The notes under the pieces are model-generated. The model made no database searches. It saw only the letters and a list, made by a program, of their open reading frames with translations, and was not told the DNA's origin. Source: Armatimonadota bacterium (GTDB taxonomy: Bacteria; Armatimonadota; Chthonomonadetes; Chthonomonadales; Chthonomonadaceae). From it: a DNA stretch of 64,000 nucleotides. Of the stretch, positions 4,134-58,847 are shown in pieces (position 1 is the stretch's first letter; each line of letters opens with the position of its first letter). Made by a program: the position numbers and the translations under genes. The stretch spans positions 124,001 through 188,000 of the forward strand of contig JAGWMJ010000005.1 of the NCBI GenBank assembly GCA_028871815.1, in the 5' to 3' direction.

Positions 4134-6050
4134 ATGAACACGCCCCTGCGCCGAGGAGAACCTCGCACACGCCTCAAGCTGGTTCACCGCGCCCTGATCG
4201 GCGGCGGTGTGGTCCTGTTAGTGCGCCTTTCCGTACTTCAGGGCGTTCGCGGCCTGGCCTACCGTGCTGCCATCCGGCCGCAGCGCATCATTCTTGAGCC
4301 AACACACGGCTCGATTGTGGATCGAAATGGCGTGATTCTGGCTCAAAGCCTATACGATGGCACGCTTGCGTTCGACCCGAGTGTGGTGCTGGCACGCCCG
4401 AAAAAGCCCGTGGAAGCACGAAGGTTCGATGCTCGCCTTCTGGCCAGTGCCTACCGCGTGGCGTCGATCGCTCATATGACGCCCATTGAGGTTCAGCAAG
4501 CGATGGATGCCGCATACCGGAGCGCGGCTGCATATCGGACCGCCGCCAAACACCAGGAATTGCGGTTCGTTCCGATCCGAAGGCATTTGAGCATCAACCA
4601 GCGGCAAGAAATCGAGACGTCTCGCCCGCGGCTACTGGGATTCGGCGTTGTCGACGGCACCGTGCGCACCTACTCGCTCGGCCCGGATGCGGCTCAGGTC
4701 GTTGGGTGGATCGATGGCCAGCATCGTCCGGTACTCGGTCTTGAAGAAACGGAACGGAGCGTTCTGGACGGGCGTGCCGGAATGTGCCTGGCGTATACCG
4801 ATCCCAGAGGTGACGAGATCCCGGGGACGCGGCGGGCGTTCACTCCCATGGTTCAAGGAGAGAACGTTCAAACCACGCTGGATGCCAGGATTCAGCGAGC
4901 GGCCGCAGCTGCAGCTTCGCGCGTCTATTCGGAGTACCACCCCAAAGGTGTAGCGGTCATCGTACTTGCGCCAACTACGGGCAGCGTACTGGGCCTCGCC
5001 GACATGCCAACCTTTGATCCCAACAGCACGGCACCTTCGGCTCGGACCCAGTCGGAGATGCGAGAGCGTGCGACATGCCAGCTCATCGAGCCCGGCAGCG
5101 TGATGAAGCCTCTGACCATGGCGGCGGCCTGGGACGCCGGCGCAGTGAACGCCTCCAGCCGGTTCCTCTGCACGGGCGTAACCGAGATTGGTGGGCGGGC
5201 GCTGCACTGCGTCCTGGAGGGAGCCCGCTTTGCTCACGGCCACGGACTGCTCAGCTGCGCCGGTATCGTCACCTATTCGTGCAACATCGGTGCGGCTCAC
5301 GTAGCGCTTCTCCTTGGCGGCCGCAAGCTGGATCAGGATTTTCGTGCATTTGGCCTGTACCAAAACGCGGGTCTGGGGTTGCCCTACGAGGCAACCGGGT
5401 TCTGGTCGCTGGTGCCCAAAGACCCGCAACCCTATGCGCCAGTCAAGGTTGCGCGAGCCGCATTCGGGCAATCTGTAGTCATAACGCCGTTTGCGCTCAT
5501 TCGCGGTTTTTCCACTATCGCGAATGATGGCGTGGCGATGCGAAGCCGAATTGTCCGCGCGTTGACGGATCTCAACGGCCAGGTGGTGCGCCGATTTCCA
5601 CCCGTCACGGAGGGCCGGGTGATATCGAGCTCCACCGCTGATGCCATCCGCCAGATGATGGTGGATGTGATAACGCGAGGAACAGGCCGTGCCGCCAGCG
5701 TCTACGGCTACATATGCGCCGGCAAGACGGGCACCGCCAACAAGTACCACGCTGGGCAGTACATCTCCAGCTTCGGAGGCTTTCTTCCCGCCGGTCCTCA
5801 CTCTACGCCACGAGCCGCAATCTACGTGATGGTAGACGAGCCCCAGGGGGCGCACTTCGGCGCGGAGGTCGCAGCCCCGGCGTGGCAGCAGCTGGCATCG
5901 CAGGTTATGACGATCCTCAACGTGCCGAGAGACGATCCGGATGGATCGCAGTTCCGCGCGGCTCATGGCGGCTCCGCACCGCCATCGGATGCCGCTTTGG
6001 CACAGAGCTCGCCTGCCGAACACAACTTGCCGACGGATTCCGCCGGCTAA
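4134..6050 (+). CDS. ftsI: FtsI-type class B penicillin-binding protein (septal transpeptidase)
   Basis: The 638-residue protein cross-links peptidoglycan at the septum. It has an N-terminal membrane anchor at about residues 18-36, a dimerisation domain beginning EPTHGSIVDRNG near 55, and the transpeptidase domain. All three active-site motifs are present: S322-V-M-K325, S382-C-N384 and K531-T-G533. The length is slightly above the E. coli protein (588). It lies 12 bp after the FtsL-like gene and is followed by a hairpin with T-rich tail at 6093-6145. Position and motifs support FtsI rather than a Spo-type paralogue. Confidence 0.9.
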   Translation: MNTPLRRGEPRTRLKLVHRALIGGGVVLLVRLSVLQGVRGLAYRAAIRPQRIILEPTHGSIVDRNGVILAQSLYDGTLAFDPSVVLARPKKPVEARRFDARLLASAYRVASIAHMTPIEVQQAMDAAYRSAAAYRTAAKHQELRFVPIRRHLSINQRQEIETSRPRLLGFGVVDGTVRTYSLGPDAAQVVGWIDGQHRPVLGLEETERSVLDGRAGMCLAYTDPRGDEIPGTRRAFTPMVQGENVQTTLDARIQRAAAAAASRVYSEYHPKGVAVIVLAPTTGSVLGLADMPTFDPNSTAPSARTQSEMRERATCQLIEPGSVMKPLTMAAAWDAGAVNASSRFLCTGVTEIGGRALHCVLEGARFAHGHGLLSCAGIVTYSCNIGAAHVALLLGGRKLDQDFRAFGLYQNAGLGLPYEATGFWSLVPKDPQPYAPVKVARAAFGQSVVITPFALIRGFSTIANDGVAMRSRIVRALTDLNGQVVRRFPPVTEGRVISSSTADAIRQMMVDVITRGTGRAASVYGYICAGKTGTANKYHAGQYISSFGGFLPAGPHSTPRAAIYVMVDEPQGAHFGAEVAAPAWQQLASQVMTILNVPRDDPDGSQFRAAHGGSAPPSDAALAQSSPAEHNLPTDSAG

Positions 6051-6092
6051 CGATTCCACGCGAAACATTGCTTCCGGTCAACGCGTGGACTT

Positions 6093-6145
6093 GCGGGGTC
6101 ATGATGGCAATAACATGCCGGAGGAAACATGACCCCGCTTTCTTT
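6093..6145 (+). terminator. Inverted repeat with T-rich tail after ftsI
   Basis: GCGGGGTCATG (6093-6103) is perfectly repeated in inverted form at 6128-6138, followed by TTTCTTT. The 24-nt loop contains a smaller GGCA/TGCC stem. This looks like an intrinsic terminator that splits the dcw cluster. A TAGTAT -10-like box lies at 6161-6166, but without a convincing -35. Confidence 0.5.
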
Positions 6146-6226
6146 CCCGTGCGGATACAGTAGTATACGGCATAGCGCAAGTGGATATCGAGTACTGAAT
6201 CAGGCACAGACGCACGAGGTTTCGCA

Positions 6227-7771
6227 ATGACCTTTGCCGGAGCCGGCCCAACCAGATCGCTTCGAGAACTGCTGGCGGAGTTGCCGGCGTACTGGCTGGA
6301 GGGCAGCGACGCCACCACCATAGCAAGCATAACGCATGACTCACGAGAGGTAAGTCCCGGCAGCCTGTTTGTATGCCTGCAAGGCCAACACGCCGATGGT
6401 CACGAGTTCGTTGAGAGTGCAGTGGCCGCCGGCGCGGTTGGTATAGTATGCGCCAGTGACGCCGACCTGCGTCCGGTTGGCGTCCCGCTGGTTCGAACGC
6501 CGGATACGCGCCTGGCGCTTGCGCTGATGTCGGCCGCATTTCACGGCTGGCCGGCCAGGCATCTGACGATAACGGGCGTGACGGGCACGAACGGTAAAAC
6601 GACCACCACGCGGATGCTGGCCCACATCCTGCGGGAATCCGGCTTCAAAGCCGCCACCATTGGTACGCTCGGCGCGGAGTGCGATGGCATTCCACTACCG
6701 AGCCAACACACAACGCCCGAGGCTGACACACTCCAGGCGCTCCTGGCCGAAATGGTGACGCGTGGCGCGGAACACGTTGTCATGGAGGTGTCGTCCCATG
6801 CGCTCGATCAGCGCCGCACCGATGGCATACCATTTGCCTGCGGCATATTTACCAACCTGACGCAAGACCACCTCGATTACCATGCCAACATGGAGGCCTA
6901 CCTGTCTGCGAAAGCGCGTCTGTTTACGGAGTATCCCACACGTTACGGGCCGGCAGGTCGGACGTTCGCCGGCGTGATCAACACTGCCGACTGGCCGGGG
7001 CTGGACCTGGTTGCGCGATCACGTGGTGATGTTTTGACCTTCACCACTGGCGAGAATCCGGCCAACCTCACGGCTCGAGATGCGCACTACGGTTCGGCAC
7101 GCACCCGCTTCACGGCAGTTTACCAAACCGGCAGATCGCCTGCTGAAGCGCTCGTGGAGCTGCCGGTCGGCGGCGCGTTCCAGGTTGGAAACGCGCTGGC
7201 AGCCATCGGCGCCGCCATCAAGCTTGGCATCGATCTGACGCCGGCTGCCCAGGCGCTTGCCACACTGCCGGCGCCGCCCGGCCGCTTTGAAAGTGTTGCT
7301 ACCGGCGGGCTCGGCTTCGGCGTGATCGTGGACTACGCCCATACGCCCGATGGACTCCAGAACCTGATCACCGGTGCGCGGGCGCTCATGCCCAGGCGAA
7401 TCCTGTTGGTTTTCGGCTGCGGCGGCGATCGGGACCGCACCAAGCGTCCGATTATGGGTCGCATCGCGGCTGAAGGATCTGACCTCGTTATTGTCACCTC
7501 CGACAATCCGCGGACAGAGGACCCGGGCGCAATTATTCGTGAGATCGAGCCTGGTTTTCGCGAGTCCGTGCGCACGCCGGACGCTATTCGCATTGAACCG
7601 GAACGCCGTGCAGCGATTCAGTGGGCGATTGCGGAGGCCCAGCCCGGTGACCTGGTGCTTATTGCGGGCAAGGGACACGAAGACTACCAGATTGTCGGTA
7701 CTGAAAAACTGCCGTTTGATGACCGCAAAGTTGCAAGTGAAATGCTCGCGGCACGCCAAGGTGGCGGCTGA
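6227..7771 (+). CDS. murE: UDP-N-acetylmuramoyl-tripeptide synthetase (meso-DAP type)
   Basis: MurE adds the third amino acid to the UDP-MurNAc dipeptide in the cytoplasm. The 514-residue protein shows the Mur-ligase ATP loop GTNGKTTTT at residues 120-128, NTTPEA-like TTPEADTLQALL, and the MEVSSHALDQ and HLDYH motifs. The substrate loop reads DNPR at about 426-429, which in this family selects meso-diaminopimelate over lysine, so the peptidoglycan is predicted to be DAP type. It is the first gene after the hairpin at 6093, so it may have its own promoter. Its stop lies 1 bp before the GTG of murF. Confidence 0.93.
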   Translation: MTFAGAGPTRSLRELLAELPAYWLEGSDATTIASITHDSREVSPGSLFVCLQGQHADGHEFVESAVAAGAVGIVCASDADLRPVGVPLVRTPDTRLALALMSAAFHGWPARHLTITGVTGTNGKTTTTRMLAHILRESGFKAATIGTLGAECDGIPLPSQHTTPEADTLQALLAEMVTRGAEHVVMEVSSHALDQRRTDGIPFACGIFTNLTQDHLDYHANMEAYLSAKARLFTEYPTRYGPAGRTFAGVINTADWPGLDLVARSRGDVLTFTTGENPANLTARDAHYGSARTRFTAVYQTGRSPAEALVELPVGGAFQVGNALAAIGAAIKLGIDLTPAAQALATLPAPPGRFESVATGGLGFGVIVDYAHTPDGLQNLITGARALMPRRILLVFGCGGDRDRTKRPIMGRIAAEGSDLVIVTSDNPRTEDPGAIIREIEPGFRESVRTPDAIRIEPERRAAIQWAIAEAQPGDLVLIAGKGHEDYQIVGTEKLPFDDRKVASEMLAARQGGG

Positions 7772-51841: not shown

Positions 51842-52165
51842 TGTGCGCCAAGCTTCGGTTCCGGCTACCGCATAAGTCTTGTTTGTCGCATTTCAGCAGG
51901 CGTCCCGCGCTGCTATCACGTTTGCCGCTGGGGCACGCGCTCACCACATGGGACCAATGCGACAACTAGGACATATAGGTTCGCGCACACGTGGTTGGCA
52001 AGAGGAGCAGCGGCCCGAGACCGCGCACCAGGCGCAGATTTTGGCTACCGCATATGTCTCATATGTCCCATTGGTCGCATTTCAGCAAGGGTCCCGCACT
52101 GCCATCGCGTTTGATTGGGGTACGCGCCCGCCAGATAGGACATATAGGTTCGCGCATACGGTTTC
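51842..52165. repeat. Two copies of a ~160-bp palindromic repeat (left array)
   Basis: Unit A1 spans about 51842-52020 and A2 about 52021-52165. Each has a left arm of degenerate 9-bp repeats (A2: CATATGTCT CATATGTCC at 52051-52068, continuing to 52080), a GC-rich centre, and an inverted right arm (A1: 51948-51979; A2: 52133-52148) containing AGGACATATAGG. The same unit recurs on the far side of the RHS locus. Confidence 0.75.
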
Positions 52166-52240
52166 GGTCCCGGCTCAGGTGTGACCGCCTCGTGTGGTCG
52201 TATTCCGACAAGGTTTTTTTTACTTTTTGTTGCAAAAGCC

Positions 52241-52269
52241 TTGACAGCATGAAACAGGCGTTGTAGACT
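52241..52269 (+). promoter_or_regulatory. Sigma-70-type promoter of the RHS gene
   Basis: A consensus TTGACA (52241-52246), 17-bp spacer and TAGACT (52264-52269) give a predicted start near 52276 and a leader of about 175 nt. Confidence 0.65.
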
Positions 52270-52450
52270 AGTTCACAGCATCCTGGTTAACAGGGTATTT
52301 TGGCAATTGTTCGCTGGCAGGGCATCGCCGGCAATCGTTTAAATAAGACGCACGCCACAGGACCTTAGTCTGCCCCGCGACGTACGCCTCTCACGGCAAC
52401 CGTTTGACGTCCGGCTGCCAGCCGCTAAGGCTGGAGAAAGGTCGATTGTA

Positions 52451-55400
52451 ATGGCAGGCAAACGTAAATCGCGCGGCGCATCCGAGTCCAACTCTCCGAA
52501 TGGTATGGGGGGGGGGCAATCGCAATTCAAAACGGATACCGCGTTCGCCCCGCGTAACTTCGCGGCGTGATTTCCTCAAGGCGGCGGCCATTACGGTCGG
52601 CGCCACCGCCGCCGGTGCGGCGGGCCTCGCCTCCAGCCAGGAGCCGGCATTCGCGTCCGGCGGCATCAACCCTCCCTCCCCACCACAGCCGGGCGCGCCC
52701 TCCAGCTGGCAGGCCAGCCATGCCATCCGGTTTGGTAACGTGAACCTCTCCACCGGCAACGTGCAGCTGCAGTTTGGCGTTACCGGCTGGTCCGGCCGCA
52801 CCGGGCTGGGATTTGGGCTTGTCTTCAATAGCCAGAGCACCCGCACTACGGCCGTTGGGCCAAAGTGGACCCACAGCTATAACTGGTATATCATCAGCGG
52901 CAATCCGGCCGTGGTAATCCGGCCGGACGGAACGGAGACGGCGTTTTACGGCAGCGGCAGCAGCTTCACTGCGCCGGTGGGGTGTTACGACACGCTGGTT
53001 CAGAATGCCGACTCCACCTGGACCCTCACGGCGAAGGACCAGACGCTCTACAAGTTCAACACCAGCGGCCAGCTGGTCTCCATCGTAGACACCTTTGGCA
53101 ACACCGTCACCGTTGCCTGGAGCGGCGGGGTCATCACCAGCATCACCGATTCGGTGAGCCGCGCCTTCACCCTGGGATACACCAGCGGCAAGCTGACCAG
53201 CGTGACCGACTGCGTATCCAACCAGTGGACGCTGGCCTACGACAGTTCGGGCCGCCTCGCCAGCATCACGTGGCCGCTGCTCGGTGGGACCGCCTATGAC
53301 TACAGTTTTGGGTACGACGCGAACAATAACGTCAACTCCATCACCGACCGAAAAACCAACCCGTGGACCTACAGCTATTTCAACACCAACTGCCTCGCCA
53401 GTGTCTCCGGGCCGTCCGGCAGCGGGGAGAGCGTGTTCTATGCGCTGATCTCCGGGTCCAGCACACCCATCCGGTATGGCGCGTCGCCGCCACCCTGGCC
53501 AAAGGCCGCAAAGACGACCATCGTGTGGACGGATCCCAATCTGAACACGGTGACGTATGCGTTCGACAGCAATGGGTTCCTCGTCGCAATGCGGGATGGG
53601 CTCGGGGATCAAAGCGCCTTCCTGTACGACGCGAACAATAACCGCAACAGTGTGCAGCTGCCCTCCGGCAAGACCACCACCTCAGTCTGGGACAGCCACG
53701 GAAACAAACTCAGCCAGAAGGACCCGCTCGGAAACGAGGACCAGTGGACCTGGAACGGCGCCGGCCAGATGCTGACACACACCGATGCGAACCTGAACGA
53801 AACGCAGTACGGCTACAACGCGAACTACGGACTTACCTCCGTGACGCGGCCGGACCTTGGACTGATTCAGTACACCCTGAACAGCACGGGCGAGCGGACG
53901 CAGATTACCGACCAGATGCTGCGGGTCACCACTTTCGGCATCGATACCTATGGCCATACCACCAGCCGCACCAATGGGCTGCTGAAGACCACCTACTGGG
54001 TCTACAGCAAGAACAGCCTTCTCACGCAGCGCACCGGGGCCGACAGCCGGGTCACCAACTACACGCAGGACGCGTGGGGTCGTTTGATCGGCATCGCCTT
54101 CCCAACCAGCGGCGCGCCATCGATCGCGTTGACGCTCGATGCGGAGGGCAACCTGACCGAGGCTGTAGACGGCACCGGCACGCGGTATTTCACCGTGAAC
54201 GCCTGGGGCAACCGGACGCAGCAGACAGACCCGCGCGGAACCACAACCGCCGTCTACGATGCCGGGCAGCGGCTGACGAGCCAGACCGACGTTACCGGCC
54301 GCATCACAAACTACACCTACGACGCGGCGAACAACACCGTGAAAGTGGCCGACAGCACCTCAAGCGCGTCGACAACCTACAACGTTGACGGCCTCAAGAC
54401 AGTGGTGGTCACCTCGGACGGCGTTACAAAAACCAACGGCTACGATGGCGCTAACCGGCTGACTTCCGTGGTGCACACCAATACGTCGACCAAGGCGACC
54501 ATCGCCGGCTACACCGTAACGCTGGACGCCGGCGGCCGCAGGACCAAAGTTGTGGAGCAGCCGAGCGGCGACATCACGGAGTACGTCTGGGATTCGTGCA
54601 ACCGGCTCACCTCCGAGACCCGCACCGGCGTCCGGCCCTACTCCGGCGGATACACCTACGATGCGAGCGACCTGCGTCTCACGGCGAAGATCATCATCAA
54701 CGGCACAACGGTGCATAACGGCGCCTACGACTACAATGCCGCCGCGCTCCTGGCCACGTGCGACGACTCGGCCACCGGGCTGAATGAGACCTACACGTGG
54801 AACAGCGACGAGACACTGGCATCATGGCCGGGCGGTTCGAGCGCGCTCTCGGCCGATTACGACGAAGACGGTCACCTACTGAGCCTGGCCGTGGGCGGCA
54901 CAACAGCCTACGAATACGGCTATGCCTTCGACGGCGGGCGGAGGTGGAAGAAAGACATTTCGGCTGCCGCCTGGACCTGGTTCCCGTGCGGCGTCGCCTG
55001 CAGCGCGGGCGACCTCGTGGAGCAGACGAGCGATCTCACGGGCCAGTCATGGTCAACCAGCGCGGTCTACCTCCGCGGCATGGGCTGCGGCTCATCCATC
55101 TACCGCCGCAACTCGGAATGGCACCTTTTCGACGCCGGCGGAACAGCCGGCGTGATCACCGACGGCTCCGCCAACGTGCTCAGCAACAACCTGTACGACG
55201 CGTTTGGTGTGCTAATGTACACCAGCGGCTCGGCCGCAACGCAGTGGCGCTTCCTGGGTCGGTTCGTGGAGGAGGAGGGGTTGGTGGCGAGTGCAGGGGG
55301 CGGAGGGGATATGCTGGTGGCGAGGGGGGCAGGAATCGGTGGCCGACATCGCGACTGCCGCGGCCTCTCGCCTGGCGCATGCTACGAATGTGAGATGGCC

Positions 55401-55637
55401 CGAATGGCGGGCAAGGTGGACCCGACCTTGGCGTGCCTCGTCGCGAACCTCCACTGCGGCTCCCACGCAGATTGCAACCCGCCGCCGCCAGGCGGACTGC
55501 CGATGGACAAGCTAAAATGTATGGCGGCGTGCGCGGCATTTTGCACACTTCTGTTTCCTGTCGGACCGCCATCGGGGTGGGCAACGTGCTTCAAGGATTG
55601 CATTCGGCTAGACTGCGAAATCACGGACGCTGGATAG
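52451..55637 (+). CDS. Tat-exported RHS/YD-repeat protein with Cys-rich tip (G10 tract at 5' end)
   Basis: RHS proteins wrap variable C-terminal tips in a YD-repeat shell. The best start, ATG 52451, has GGAGAAAGG upstream, but a run of ten G (52507-52516) puts it out of frame with the body; nine or twelve G would join them. From the in-frame ATG 52500, which lacks a ribosome site, the product is 1045 residues. It begins with a Tat signal (TSRRDFLKAAAITVGATAAG, residues 20-39), has YD-like repeats to about residue 920, the core end LYDAFGVLMYTSG, and FVEEEGLVASAGGGGDMLV. A tip of about 97 residues with 12 cysteines follows. The last 335 bp of the core (54993-55327) recur downstream. Confidence 0.85.
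52507..52516 (+). repeat. Homopolymer G10 near the RHS start
   Basis: Ten consecutive G lie after the best start codon (ATG 52451) of the RHS gene. Frame depends on tract length: nine or twelve join that start to the RHS body, ten truncates after about 40 codons. It may be a phase-variable switch or a sequence error. Confidence 0.6.
54993..55327 (+). repeat. RHS core end, copy 1 (within the full gene)
   Basis: This is the parent of two downstream copies. It begins GTCGCCTGCAGCGCGGG and aligns with 56390-56724 at a constant offset of 1397 bp without indels, and its end (55146-55328) with 57970-58152 at 2824 bp. Confidence 0.85.
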
Positions 55638-55724
55638 TTTTGGGGCGCGCCGAGCAGTGATCCGAGGATGGCGTGTGGTTGTGGCGCAAATCTGCAGCCG
55701 CACCCCGTCCGGGAGCCGCAGCGA

Positions 55725-56381
55725 ATGAAACAACAGAGTGACGTTTTCGCGTCGTTTGAACCGATTGACGACGGATTCCTTAGGCGCGACTGGACGGCGG
55801 CTCAGCTTCCAGCTTCTTGGTTGGCAGCGTCCACGGAGCTTGCGATTCAGCGCACCTCAGATCTGGCTACGCGATATAGCGGTCTTCGGCCCGACAGCGT
55901 GCATCGGCTGGACTGGCTTCCCGATCGGCTGCCGACCCTGGCGGTCCAGTTTCCGTGCGAGATACCGCCGGAGGAGCGGATGCCCTCCAGCGTGCTCGCA
56001 GCAGCGCGCGATATTGCAATGCGGCTGTTTCCCAGCGCGCGCGAGGAGGAGCTATCCGACTCGGCACAACTTGGCTCTCTGGGCTGGCCGGACCGGTTCG
56101 ATTTGACAGCCGATATCGGCCGCCTCAGCGCGAGCATGGTTTTTCGAGACGAGGCCGCACTGCGTGAGATGGGCGCCGCACTGAGCGGTATGCTTGTGCG
56201 CGGTCCGCTTACGGGACACACGCCGGGTGCACTTGTCACACGCATCCGCGAGTTTACGGATGCGGTCCGGGCGGCCGTGCCGTGCGTGGTGTCGGTGATG
56301 ACGCCCTGCGGAGAGCCCACCCGTGCCGTGGATCTTAGCCCGGTGTGGGCCACAGTCGCGGCGGGCATTCTGCTAACGTGA
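55725..56381 (+). CDS. Unknown soluble protein downstream of RHS tip 1 (immunity candidate)
   Basis: This 218-residue protein has no recognised domain, signal or membrane segment. It is rich in acidic and Arg residues and has a LGWPDRFDLTADIG stretch near residues 125-138. It starts 87 bp after the RHS stop and lies directly before a displaced RHS core copy, the place where immunity genes sit in RHS toxin loci. That role is inference from position. ATG 55725 (GGGAG about 10 bp upstream) is used; ATG 55668 is in frame. Its stop overlaps GTG 56378 of the next cassette (GTGA). Confidence 0.55.
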   Translation: MKQQSDVFASFEPIDDGFLRRDWTAAQLPASWLAASTELAIQRTSDLATRYSGLRPDSVHRLDWLPDRLPTLAVQFPCEIPPEERMPSSVLAAARDIAMRLFPSAREEELSDSAQLGSLGWPDRFDLTADIGRLSASMVFRDEAALREMGAALSGMLVRGPLTGHTPGALVTRIREFTDAVRAAVPCVVSVMTPCGEPTRAVDLSPVWATVAAGILLT

Positions 56382-57055
56382 GCGGTCGTGTCGCCTGCAG
56401 CGCGGGAGACCTGGTGGAGCAGACCAGCGACCTAACGGGCCAGTCATGGTCAACCAGCGCGCTCTATCTCCGCGGGATGGGCTGCGGCTCATCGATCTAC
56501 CGGCGCAACTCGGAATGGCACCTCTTCGACGCCGGCGGAACAGCCGGCGTCATCACCGACGGTTCCGCCAACGTACTCAGCAACAACCTGTACGACGCGT
56601 TTGGCGTATTGATGTATGCGAGCGGCTCGGCCGCCACGCAGTGGCGCTTCCAGGGCCGGTTCGTTGAGGAGGTGGGCTTGGTCGCAAGCGCAGGGGGTGG
56701 TGGGGATATGCTGGTGGGGAGGGGAGTCGCTCTTTCGTCCGCGTTGCCCGGCCGGATACCGGATTGCGGCCATATGAGTCCGGGCGCCTGCTTCCTGTGC
56801 CTGACGGCAATCGGCGTGCCGTGCGACAAGGCGAGGGCGCTATGCGGCGCACACACGCTGTGCCTGCCGCCGCCGGGCCCGCGCGGATGTGGGTTCTTGG
56901 AAAGCTTTCGATGTTGGCTCATGTGCGGCTCACGCGGCGTGACGGCGTGCATGGTCAACCCAGACGGTCTCATGGATTGCCAATGTGGCGAGGATCTTGC
57001 GGGCGGCCCCGACATGGAGGATCCTGATGGCGGGGCGCCCGGAGGCCCCGACTGA
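56378..57055 (+). CDS. Orphan RHS core fragment with second Cys-rich tip
   Basis: This 225-residue frame starts at GTG 56378 and copies the last part of the RHS core (VACSAGDLVEQTSD through GGGGDMLVGRG), then switches to a new tip of about 105 residues. The tip has 12 cysteines like tip 1: PDCGHMSPGACFLC, then CGAHTLC and RCWLMC. There is no Tat or other signal, so it is probably a silent cassette or donor for recombination into the full gene, or a translated fragment coupled to the previous gene by GTGA. The DNA match to the parent core ends abruptly near 56725. Confidence 0.7.
   Translation: MSGRVACSAGDLVEQTSDLTGQSWSTSALYLRGMGCGSSIYRRNSEWHLFDAGGTAGVITDGSANVLSNNLYDAFGVLMYASGSAATQWRFQGRFVEEVGLVASAGGGGDMLVGRGVALSSALPGRIPDCGHMSPGACFLCLTAIGVPCDKARALCGAHTLCLPPPGPRGCGFLESFRCWLMCGSRGVTACMVNPDGLMDCQCGEDLAGGPDMEDPDGGAPGGPD
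56390..56724 (+). repeat. RHS core end, copy 2
   Basis: It matches 54993-55327 with scattered substitutions and no indels; similarity stops at the start of the tip. This boundary marks the core/tip junction of the cassette. Confidence 0.85.
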
Positions 57056-57098
57056 TGTACGCGGTCGTGTCACAATGCGAGCGGCGAGGAGAACCACT

Positions 57099-57620
57099 AT
57101 GAATCGGCGAGACACAGCATTCGTTTTGGCCGGGGTTGCGGTTGGGGCGCTCGGCTCGCTCGCGTGGTCGATGCGGCCGGTATTGCAGCTGGGACCGACC
57201 CCTGCACATGAGTTGATGCGCTCAAACGGCGGCGCTGTATTCGACATCAGGACGAACCGCCTCCTCTCCATCCACGGCGCCGCAACCGGGATGAACCTGA
57301 CGATAGAGCGGCCCACAAATGCCGCTGCAACGAAGACGCTTGCTCGCGAACACCGGCCGAACTCTCCCGGCCAATCGGTGGAGGGCCCGGCTAAGATCGG
57401 GCTGATGCCGGAGAACGCCCCTGCCTCCCCGGCTTCGGCCGCGTGGTCGATCAGCATACCGGCCGGCATACGTGCGAGCGTGAGCGCACTCAGTTCCCGC
57501 ACTACCCTGGGCTTCCGGATGCCACCAATGGTAATGGTCGTGGTCTCCGCAGACAAGCCTGCAGGCGCTCAGCCCGTGGGAGCCTACGGCTCGCGATCGG
57601 CGACGGCGGGGAGGTCGTAG
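57099..57620 (+). CDS. Small membrane-anchored unknown protein after RHS tip 2
   Basis: The 173-residue protein has one membrane segment near residues 6-24 (AFVLAGVAVGALGSLAWSM), with a GAGGAGA ribosome site before ATG 57099. No family was recognised. It follows tip 2 as the 55725 gene follows tip 1, so it is an immunity candidate by position. An open frame in another phase (about 57560-57955, containing GGEVVGGFVVGADDEAEIG) continues past its stop, so the gene may be truncated by a frameshift near 57560-57615. Confidence 0.5.
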   Translation: MNRRDTAFVLAGVAVGALGSLAWSMRPVLQLGPTPAHELMRSNGGAVFDIRTNRLLSIHGAATGMNLTIERPTNAAATKTLAREHRPNSPGQSVEGPAKIGLMPENAPASPASAAWSISIPAGIRASVSALSSRTTLGFRMPPMVMVVVSADKPAGAQPVGAYGSRSATAGRS

Positions 57621-57969
57621 GCGGCTTCGTCGTCGGTGCCGACGACGAGGCGGAAATCGGCGCAGTATTCGGACCCGGTGCCTTGCTGGTTGGCGGAATC
57701 CCGGGCGGGCGTGGCATGTTTGCCCGCGGCCGCGGTCGAGTGCCAGTCGTTATGGCTCTCCATCTCAGCCCCGGGACCGGCCGATTGCTCGGGCTTGCCG
57801 CCACGTGGCCGGCGCGCGGTGCCCGGCCTGCGGGCCGCGGCACGGAAGATGTGACCGCGGTGAACCTGCTCTCAAATGGACCGGCCCAGTCCGCGCTCCA
57901 GTGGCGACCGCCAGCGTCGGCGACGCGCGTCGCTGAGTTCCACAGTTTGCCATAGCATAATGCGGCCCG
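57621..57969 (+). other. Region with an out-of-phase continuation of the preceding gene
   Basis: A frame that is open to 57955 reads as ordinary protein (GALLVGGIPGGRGMFARGRG; ending RVAEFHSLP) but has no good start of its own. It probably belonged to the gene at 57099 before a frameshift. Nothing else is seen here. Confidence 0.35.
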
Positions 57970-58269
57970 GCCGGCGTAATCACAGATGGCTCCGCTAACG
58001 TGCTCAGCAACAACCTCTACGACGCGTTTGGTGTGCTAATGTACACCAGCGGCTCGGGCGTAACGCAGTGGCGCTTCCAGGGCCGGTTCGTTGAGGAGGA
58101 AGGGCTGGTGGCGAGCGCCGCGGGCAAAGGGGATGTGCTGGTGGGGAGGGTTACGCCGCTGAACGCAAAGCAACACGCCCCACCCAAACAAGGGCCGGTC
58201 GCACGACCCAGGCGGGCACGACAGCGACCGCACCTTGTGCCAGGATGCAGATTCCGGCTGCCGCATTAG
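57970..58269 (+). pseudogene. Truncated third RHS core copy
   Basis: 57970-58152 matches RHS core 55146-55328 (GVITDGSANVLSNNLYDAF through GDVLVGR) at a constant offset. The frame then runs 39 codons with no cysteine-rich tip and stops at 58269, within a repeat unit. It has no start region or signal and looks like a decayed cassette. Confidence 0.75.
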
Positions 58270-58757
58270 TCTTGTTTATCGCATTTCAGCAGGCGTCCCG
58301 CGCTGGGGTACGCGCTCACGACATGGGACCAACGCGACATATAGGACATATAGGTTCGCGCACACGTGGTCAGTAAGCGGAGCAGTGGCACTTGGCCGTG
58401 CGCCAGGCGCAGATTCCGGCTGCCGCATATGTCTCATATGTCCCATTGGTCGCATTTCAGCAAGGGTCCCGCGCTGCTATCACGTTTGATTGGGGTGCGC
58501 GCCCACCAGATAGGACATATAGGTTCGCACACACGTTGCCGGCAAGCGGAGTAGCGCACCCGCGCCGCGGATGAATCTCAGCGGGATGGTTCCGGCTGTG
58601 CGCCACGCATCGGTTCCGGTGCCGCATACGTCTCATATGTCCCATTGGTCGCATTTCAGCAAGCGCCCCGCACTGGGGTAGGCGCTAACCAGATGGGACC
58701 AATGCGGCAAGTAGGTTCACGCAGACGTGGCTAGCAAGCGGAGCGGCGGCGCGCGGC
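58236..58757. repeat. Three copies of the ~160-bp palindromic repeat (right array)
   Basis: Units B1 (about 58236-58396), B2 (58397-58560) and B3 (58597-58757) share the layout of the left array, and a fourth begins near 58758. Examples of arms: CATATGTCTCATATGTCC at 58426-58443 and CCAGATAGGACATATAGG at 58505-58522 (B2). B3 has CATACGTCTCATATGTCC in its left arm. The array abuts the truncated RHS copy and a DUF4838 gene. Confidence 0.75.
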
Positions 58758-58847
58758 TGTGCGCCAACCTGCTGTCCCGGCAGGAATCCGAACCGCGCCG
58801 TCGGAATTGCCGTCTGGAAGCGACGGGGTGACAAGGATGGTGCGATC

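What the first reader, a model, noticed from the sequence alone, without database searches (positions are those of the whole stretch)
52451..58269. RHS locus with three copies of one core end and replaceable tips
The last 335 bp of the RHS core (54993-55327) recur at 56390-56724 (offset 1397) and, in part, at 57970-58152 (offset 2824), all without indels. The sequence after each copy differs, and a small unknown gene follows each of the first two tips. This is the layout known for RHS/YD polymorphic toxin loci with orphan cassettes. Here it occurs in a Tat-exported protein rather than a T6SS-linked one.
Basis: partly seen in the sequence, partly recalled or inferred. Interest (0 to 1): 0.8.

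Follow-up and report, generated by a model that had tools for sequence, protein, structure and literature searches.

The report
Tat-exported RHS toxin with spare tips
A bacterium of the phylum Armatimonadota carries a secreted cage-like protein whose cysteine-rich end, probably a toxin, can be swapped for spare ends stored next door together with their likely antidotes; it is a new variant of a known bacterial weapon system.

Summary
In detail: the last 335 bp of an RHS core recur at 90% identity 1,397 bp on, and in part (189 bp, 88%) 2,824 bp on, with sharp edges. The genome holds 12 DNA-level copies on four contigs; relatives hold long arrays. In 68 cassettes from 11 genomes the unit is core-end fragment, short variable tip, one partner gene. 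Homologous partners nearly always follow homologous tips (14 of 16; shuffles at most 6), neighbouring cassettes do not match, and two species of one genus show the same tip once on a long head and once as an orphan behind another tip and partner. So this is an RHS polymorphic-toxin locus with orphan tip/immunity cassettes. Unusual: heads carry a Tat signal (four genera; TatC present, T6SS sheath absent), the usual DPxG pre-tip motif is missing, and tips average 9.5% cysteine; two relatives' tips are phospholipase A2-like. Corrections: the third copy is a frameshifted, truncated remnant, and the two intact tips are themselves distant homologues. Toxicity, immunity and Tat export are inferred, not shown.

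The parts
51845..52499 (+). Upstream region: dispersed repeats, then leader DNA shared with two other copies of the locus on contig C11 up to the start codon
   Evidence: blastn 77-83% to C11a and C11b; repeat copies
52500..55637 (+). Main RHS gene, 1045 aa: Tat signal, DUF6531, RHS repeats, core end, tip 1
   Evidence: Pfam RHS_repeat 1e-36 (11 stretches), DUF6531 1e-8; YD repeats
52500..52658 (+). Predicted Tat signal (TSRRDFLKAAAITVG...)
   Evidence: TIGR01409 above its cut-off; same RR.F motif in G019, G022, G045
54993..55327 (+). Core end, copy 1
55323..55634 (+). Tip 1, cysteine-rich, predicted toxin domain
   Evidence: homologue with the same partner on contig C4; dN/dS 0.44; no Pfam match
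55725..56381 (+). Partner gene 1, 218 aa, predicted immunity gene of tip 1
   Evidence: 69% identical on C4 behind the same tip, none in 30 other genomes of the order; dN/dS 0.33
56378..57055 (+). Orphan cassette: core end copy 2 (56390-56724) plus tip 2; GTG start overlaps the stop of partner 1
56726..57052 (+). Tip 2, cysteine-rich, distant homologue of tip 1
57099..57620 (+). Partner gene 2 with N-terminal membrane anchor, predicted immunity gene of tip 2; 3' end uncertain
57962..58249 (+). Remnant: core end copy 3 (57962-58150) plus frameshifted, truncated start of a third tip type
   Evidence: 85% DNA identity to a tip on contig C11, ending at 58249
58238..58790 (+). Dispersed repeats closing the locus, matching those upstream

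Best explanation
This is an RHS-type polymorphic toxin locus. A Tat signal is predicted to carry a large RHS shell protein across the inner membrane; its last ~100 residues, a cysteine-rich domain that probably forms disulfides in the envelope or outside, are the effector. The gene directly behind is the cognate immunity gene. Behind it lie displaced tip/immunity pairs, each still carrying a piece of the core end that can serve as homology for recombination, so that the main gene can exchange tip 1 for tip 2 while the matching immunity gene comes with it. Shown from sequence: repeats, Tat motif, junction, tip diversity, tip-partner co-inheritance, one tip displacement between sister species. 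Inferred: toxicity, immunity, Tat transport, disulfides, target (two relatives' tips are phospholipase A2-like, so membranes are one likely target), and how the protein leaves the cell.
For: Sharp core-end repeats; arrays of [core end][tip][partner] in relatives; tip and partner co-inherited, 14 of 18 partner pairs vs shuffle max 5, 14 of 16 vs max 6, and 4 of 6 between genera, neighbours not (1/9, 0/8); same tip on a long head in G183 and as an orphan in G184; conserved Tat signal, TatC and VKOR present, TssC absent; tips 9.5% Cys vs 1.2% controls, partners with hydrophobic segments 69% vs 37%; two PLA2-like tips with propeller-like partners; core dN/dS 0.04-0.08, tip and partner 0.33-0.44.
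Against: No toxicity or immunity shown; neither window tip nor either window partner matches a known toxin or immunity family. Many homologous tips have partners that are not detectably related. The DPxG pre-tip motif of classical Rhs is absent. Tat moves folded proteins, whereas cysteine-rich tips would need oxidation after export. Partner 1 shows no obvious export signal.
Confidence: 0.8

Rival explanations
1. The tips are not toxins but variable surface or binding domains (antigenic or adhesin-like variation, or phage-receptor escape), and the partner genes are tip-specific chaperones or anchors.
For: Cysteine-rich secreted domains of unknown activity; partners often membrane-bound or exported; most tips match no toxin family.
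Against: Two tips look like phospholipase A2 with the catalytic motif, a toxin domain already listed for polymorphic toxins (PMC3482391); one partner per tip, co-inherited, is the toxin/immunity layout.
Confidence: 0.12
2. Orphan copies are only decaying recombination debris spread with the dispersed repeats; they have no role in tip exchange.
For: True of copy 3; several orphans elsewhere lack start codons or are broken; dispersed repeats flank the locus.
Against: Copy 2 has dN/dS 0.04 against copy 1 at dS 0.46 (though part of this may predate displacement); orphan ORFs and partners are intact in most arrays; an orphan tip of G184 is the main tip of G183.
Confidence: 0.07
3. All three segments belong to one invariant protein interrupted by sequencing errors.
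For: None found.
Against: Intervening genes with their own coding signal and a homologous block on C4 of the same genome; the same order of parts in eleven genomes.
Confidence: 0.01

Closest known systems
Enterobacterial Rhs loci with orphan rhs-CT/rhsI pairs (Salmonella, PMC3967940)
   Same: Main RHS gene, immunity gene, then orphan core-end/tip fragments with own immunity genes; shared core-end DNA (522 bp at 95% there, 335 bp at 90% here)
   Different: There the tip begins at DPxGL and delivery is by contact; here no DPxG, a Tat signal, no T6SS sheath gene, cysteine-rich tips
Neisseria maf genomic islands, MafB/MafI with mafB-CT cassettes (PMC4287609)
   Same: Secreted toxin followed by arrays of alternative C-termini, each with an immunity gene, some cassettes with and some without a start codon
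   Different: Head is DUF1020, not RHS; no Tat signal reported in the passages read; tips are not all cysteine-rich as far as I know
Polymorphic toxins with Tox-PLA2 tips (catalogue PMC3482391)
   Same: Phospholipase A2 listed as a tip of RHS-type polymorphic toxins, T2SS-associated
   Different: Words for Tat and cysteine-rich tips do not occur in the text held; no immunity protein listed there for Tox-PLA2, here a propeller-like partner in both cases
Tc toxin TcC component (own knowledge)
   Same: RHS shell with hypervariable C-terminus
   Different: No SpvB/TcdB domains found here; Tat signal; adjacent co-inherited partner genes
WapA of Bacillus (own knowledge)
   Same: Exported RHS protein with variable toxic C-terminus and immunity gene
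   Different: Gram-positive wall protein with a Sec signal; here Tat and an Armatimonadota host

Membership tests
RHS polymorphic toxin system | RHS/YD repeats in the head | tested here: met
RHS polymorphic toxin system | Conserved core followed by an abruptly variable C-terminal tip | tested here: met
RHS polymorphic toxin system | Linked tip-specific gene downstream | tested here: met
   co-inheritance
RHS polymorphic toxin system | Standalone/orphan tip cassettes with core-end homology | tested here: met
RHS polymorphic toxin system | Tip is toxic and partner protects | not testable with these tools
   needs expression assays
Classical enterobacterial Rhs (subtype) | DPxG pre-tip motif at the core/tip junction | tested here: not met
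   absent in window and relatives; a second RHS family in the same genome has a related canonical end
T6SS-delivered Rhs | T6SS in the genome | tested here: not met
   no VipB/TssC match, E. coli control rings
Tat substrate | Twin-arginine signal and Tat machinery | tested here: met
   TIGR01409, four genera, TatC; transport itself untested
Tc toxin TcC | SpvB/TcdB-type head domains | tested here: not met
Phospholipase A2 (tips of L086 and L106 only) | CCxxHDxC active-site motif and PLA2 fold | tested here: inconclusive
   motif present in both; Pfam E 0.0013 and 0.039, under cut-off; best Foldseek hits are rice PLA2, probability 1.00 but E 0.05 on a weak model

The most novel reading that the evidence does not exclude
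A distinct class of polymorphic toxin in which a folded RHS cage is exported by Tat and its disulfide-rich tip acts on the cell envelope of competitors, with mainly membrane-bound or exported immunity proteins and large recombining arrays of spare tips, so far found only in Armatimonadota.
Probability: 0.35. Interest if true: 0.75.

Novelty: new variant of a known kind. Interest (0 to 1): 0.6.

Why it matters
It would extend RHS weapons to a little-studied phylum and to the Tat route, raise the question how a protein that Tat moves folded can carry a disulfide-rich cargo, and offer dozens of unclassified cysteine-rich effector and partner families. Natural tip-displacement pairs in sister species make the recombination model directly testable.

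Tried and rejected
One-protein reading: refuted by intervening genes and homologues. Third copy as a working tip: rejected. Start/stop overlap as proof of orphan expression: GTGA in the window, but only 8 of 44 orphans show an NTGA overlap, not clearly above what chance could give, so not used. Whole-protein AlphaFold model: mean pLDDT 49, too poor for a fold search. Window tips and partners against Pfam and NCBIfam: nothing. Homologues of partner 1 outside this genome: none in 30 genomes of the order. Partner 2 as a member of the L059/L061/L096 partner family: no support. Strict same-site tip swap in G183/G184: flanking genes differ, so the loci have also moved. Literature on Chthonomonas/Armatimonadetes RHS loci or Tat-exported RHS toxins: nothing relevant found in the open library.

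Full report
OBSERVATION. The three repeats exist. Copy 1 (54993-55327) and copy 2 (56390-56724) match at 90.1% over 335 bp without gaps; copy 3 (57962-58150) matches copy 1 at 88.4% over 189 bp. The edges are abrupt on both sides. Genome-wide, the same 335 bp give 12 matches on contigs C5, C4, C11 and C6, and 29 at protein level, the weaker ones belonging to a second RHS family.

THE MAIN GENE. 52500-55637 encodes 1045 aa with 11 RHS-repeat stretches and DUF6531, and a Tat signal above the NCBIfam cut-off. Homologues in G019 (single contig of 3.44 Mb, same family), G022 and G045 carry the same RR.F motif. The genome has TatC, the disulfide-forming enzyme VKOR (no DsbB) and no T6SS sheath protein. 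The core ends without the DPxG motif of classical Rhs; the tip starts about where 'ARYYDP' stands in canonical cores (alignment; the placement is my reading).

CASSETTES IN RELATIVES. In members of the same family and in further Armatimonadota the unit [core-end fragment][Cys-rich tip][one partner gene] is repeated in arrays, up to five in a row on one short contig. The core-end profile is found in 20 of 291 Armatimonadota genomes, 10 of 156 genera; named records are Chthonomonadia and other Armatimonadota assemblies.

TIP AND PARTNER GO TOGETHER. All-against-all phmmer of 59 cassettes: 18 partner pairs are homologous at E<1e-3 and 14 of them also have homologous tips; 2000 shuffles give a mean of 0.63 and a maximum of 5. 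With 68 cassettes from 11 genomes and shuffling only inside genera, 14 of 16 (maximum 6 in 5000); between genera 4 of 6 at E<1e-3 (none of 5000 shuffles reaches it). The neighbouring cassette of strongly homologous tips is homologous in only 1 of 9 (next) and 0 of 8 (previous) cases, so this is not mere conserved gene order. In the window, tip 1 and partner 1 recur together on contig C4. The rule is one-sided: many related tips have partners not detectably related, as expected when either evolves fast or is exchanged.

A DISPLACEMENT BETWEEN SISTER SPECIES. In G183 a long head (533-aa ORF) carries tip Y, followed by partner Y. In G184, same genus, a head 95% identical over 339 aa carries tip X and partner X, and behind them lies a core-end fragment with tip Y and partner Y (94% DNA identity over 1.48 kb). 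The two homologous blocks overlap in the core end. Both heads are N-terminally incomplete in these loci and the flanking genes differ, so the loci have also moved.

WHAT THE TIPS ARE. Tips average 9.5% cysteine, against 1.2% in 294 control ORFs and 1.0% in tips of the second RHS family of the same genome; 12 cysteines is the commonest count. Most match no family. Two, in G024 (L086) and in isolate Ch118 (L106), are phospholipase A2-like: CCxxHDxC motif (2 hits against 0.11 per shuffle), sub-threshold Pfam matches, a weak PDB sequence match and rice PLA2 as the best Foldseek hits of a weak model. Both have a PD40 propeller-like partner. Partners have a hydrophobic segment in 69% against 37% of controls, which fits toxins acting outside the cytoplasm; partner 1 of the window is an exception.

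SELECTION. Between C5 and C4 the core end has dN/dS 0.08, tip 1 0.44, partner 1 0.33; core copy 1 against copy 2 is 0.04 at dS 0.46. The core is under strong constraint, tip and partner change faster. Part of the divergence may predate displacement, so this does not prove that the orphan is expressed.

Copy 3 is a remnant: its tip, of a type found on C11, is frameshifted and stops at 58249 where a dispersed repeat begins. Tips 1 and 2 are distant homologues of each other, so here a swap would be between related effectors. T6SS is not merely unlinked: its sheath gene was not found in the genome at all.

MECHANISM AND COMPARISON. In Salmonella the orphan toxin fragment recombines through shared core DNA with the main gene (PMC3967940), and Neisseria maf islands keep silent and potentially expressed cassettes (PMC4287609). 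The same logic fits here. PLA2 is a listed tip of polymorphic toxins (PMC3482391). What I did not find described is an RHS head with a Tat signal, a uniformly cysteine-rich tip repertoire and a junction without DPxG; the search of papers was limited to an open-access library. Tat transport, disulfide formation, toxicity, immunity and the way out of the cell are inferences.

Noticed in passing
own genome contigs C1, C2, C8, C9, C10, C12, C20 (L043-L050): A second RHS family with canonical core ends (GARYYDPQVGRFASRDSMLDQ...DPSG) and many Gly-rich (17%), hydrophobic, cysteine-poor tips, also in arrays spaced 1.2-1.8 kb.
   Followed up: partly
L009 about 5331-7264 and L010 (reverse strand) about 5167-7201: Secreted metalloprotease-like genes (HExxHxxGxxH) with a related downstream gene stand where the RHS head would be, behind the same upstream repeats or leader region and in front of core-end cassettes.
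   Followed up: no
L011, reverse strand, about 1212-2599: The RHS leader DNA up to the start codon is fused directly to a core end plus tip: a headless product without the Tat signal, with a partner gene that looks exported.
   Followed up: partly
window 51845-52200 and 58238-58790: Dispersed 80-160 bp repeat, 48 pieces at about ten places in the genome, at most Tat-RHS loci but also elsewhere; spurious ORFs run through it.
   Followed up: partly
L149 (G184) and L150 (G183): Homologous tip arrays of two species of one genus lie beside different flanking genes, so the arrays move or translocate as a whole.
   Followed up: partly
window 56378-56381; L009 7262-7266 and 8834-8837: Orphan core-end ORFs start on the stop codon of the gene before (GTGA, TGATG), as if translationally coupled; over all arrays 8 of 44 show such an overlap.
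   Followed up: partly
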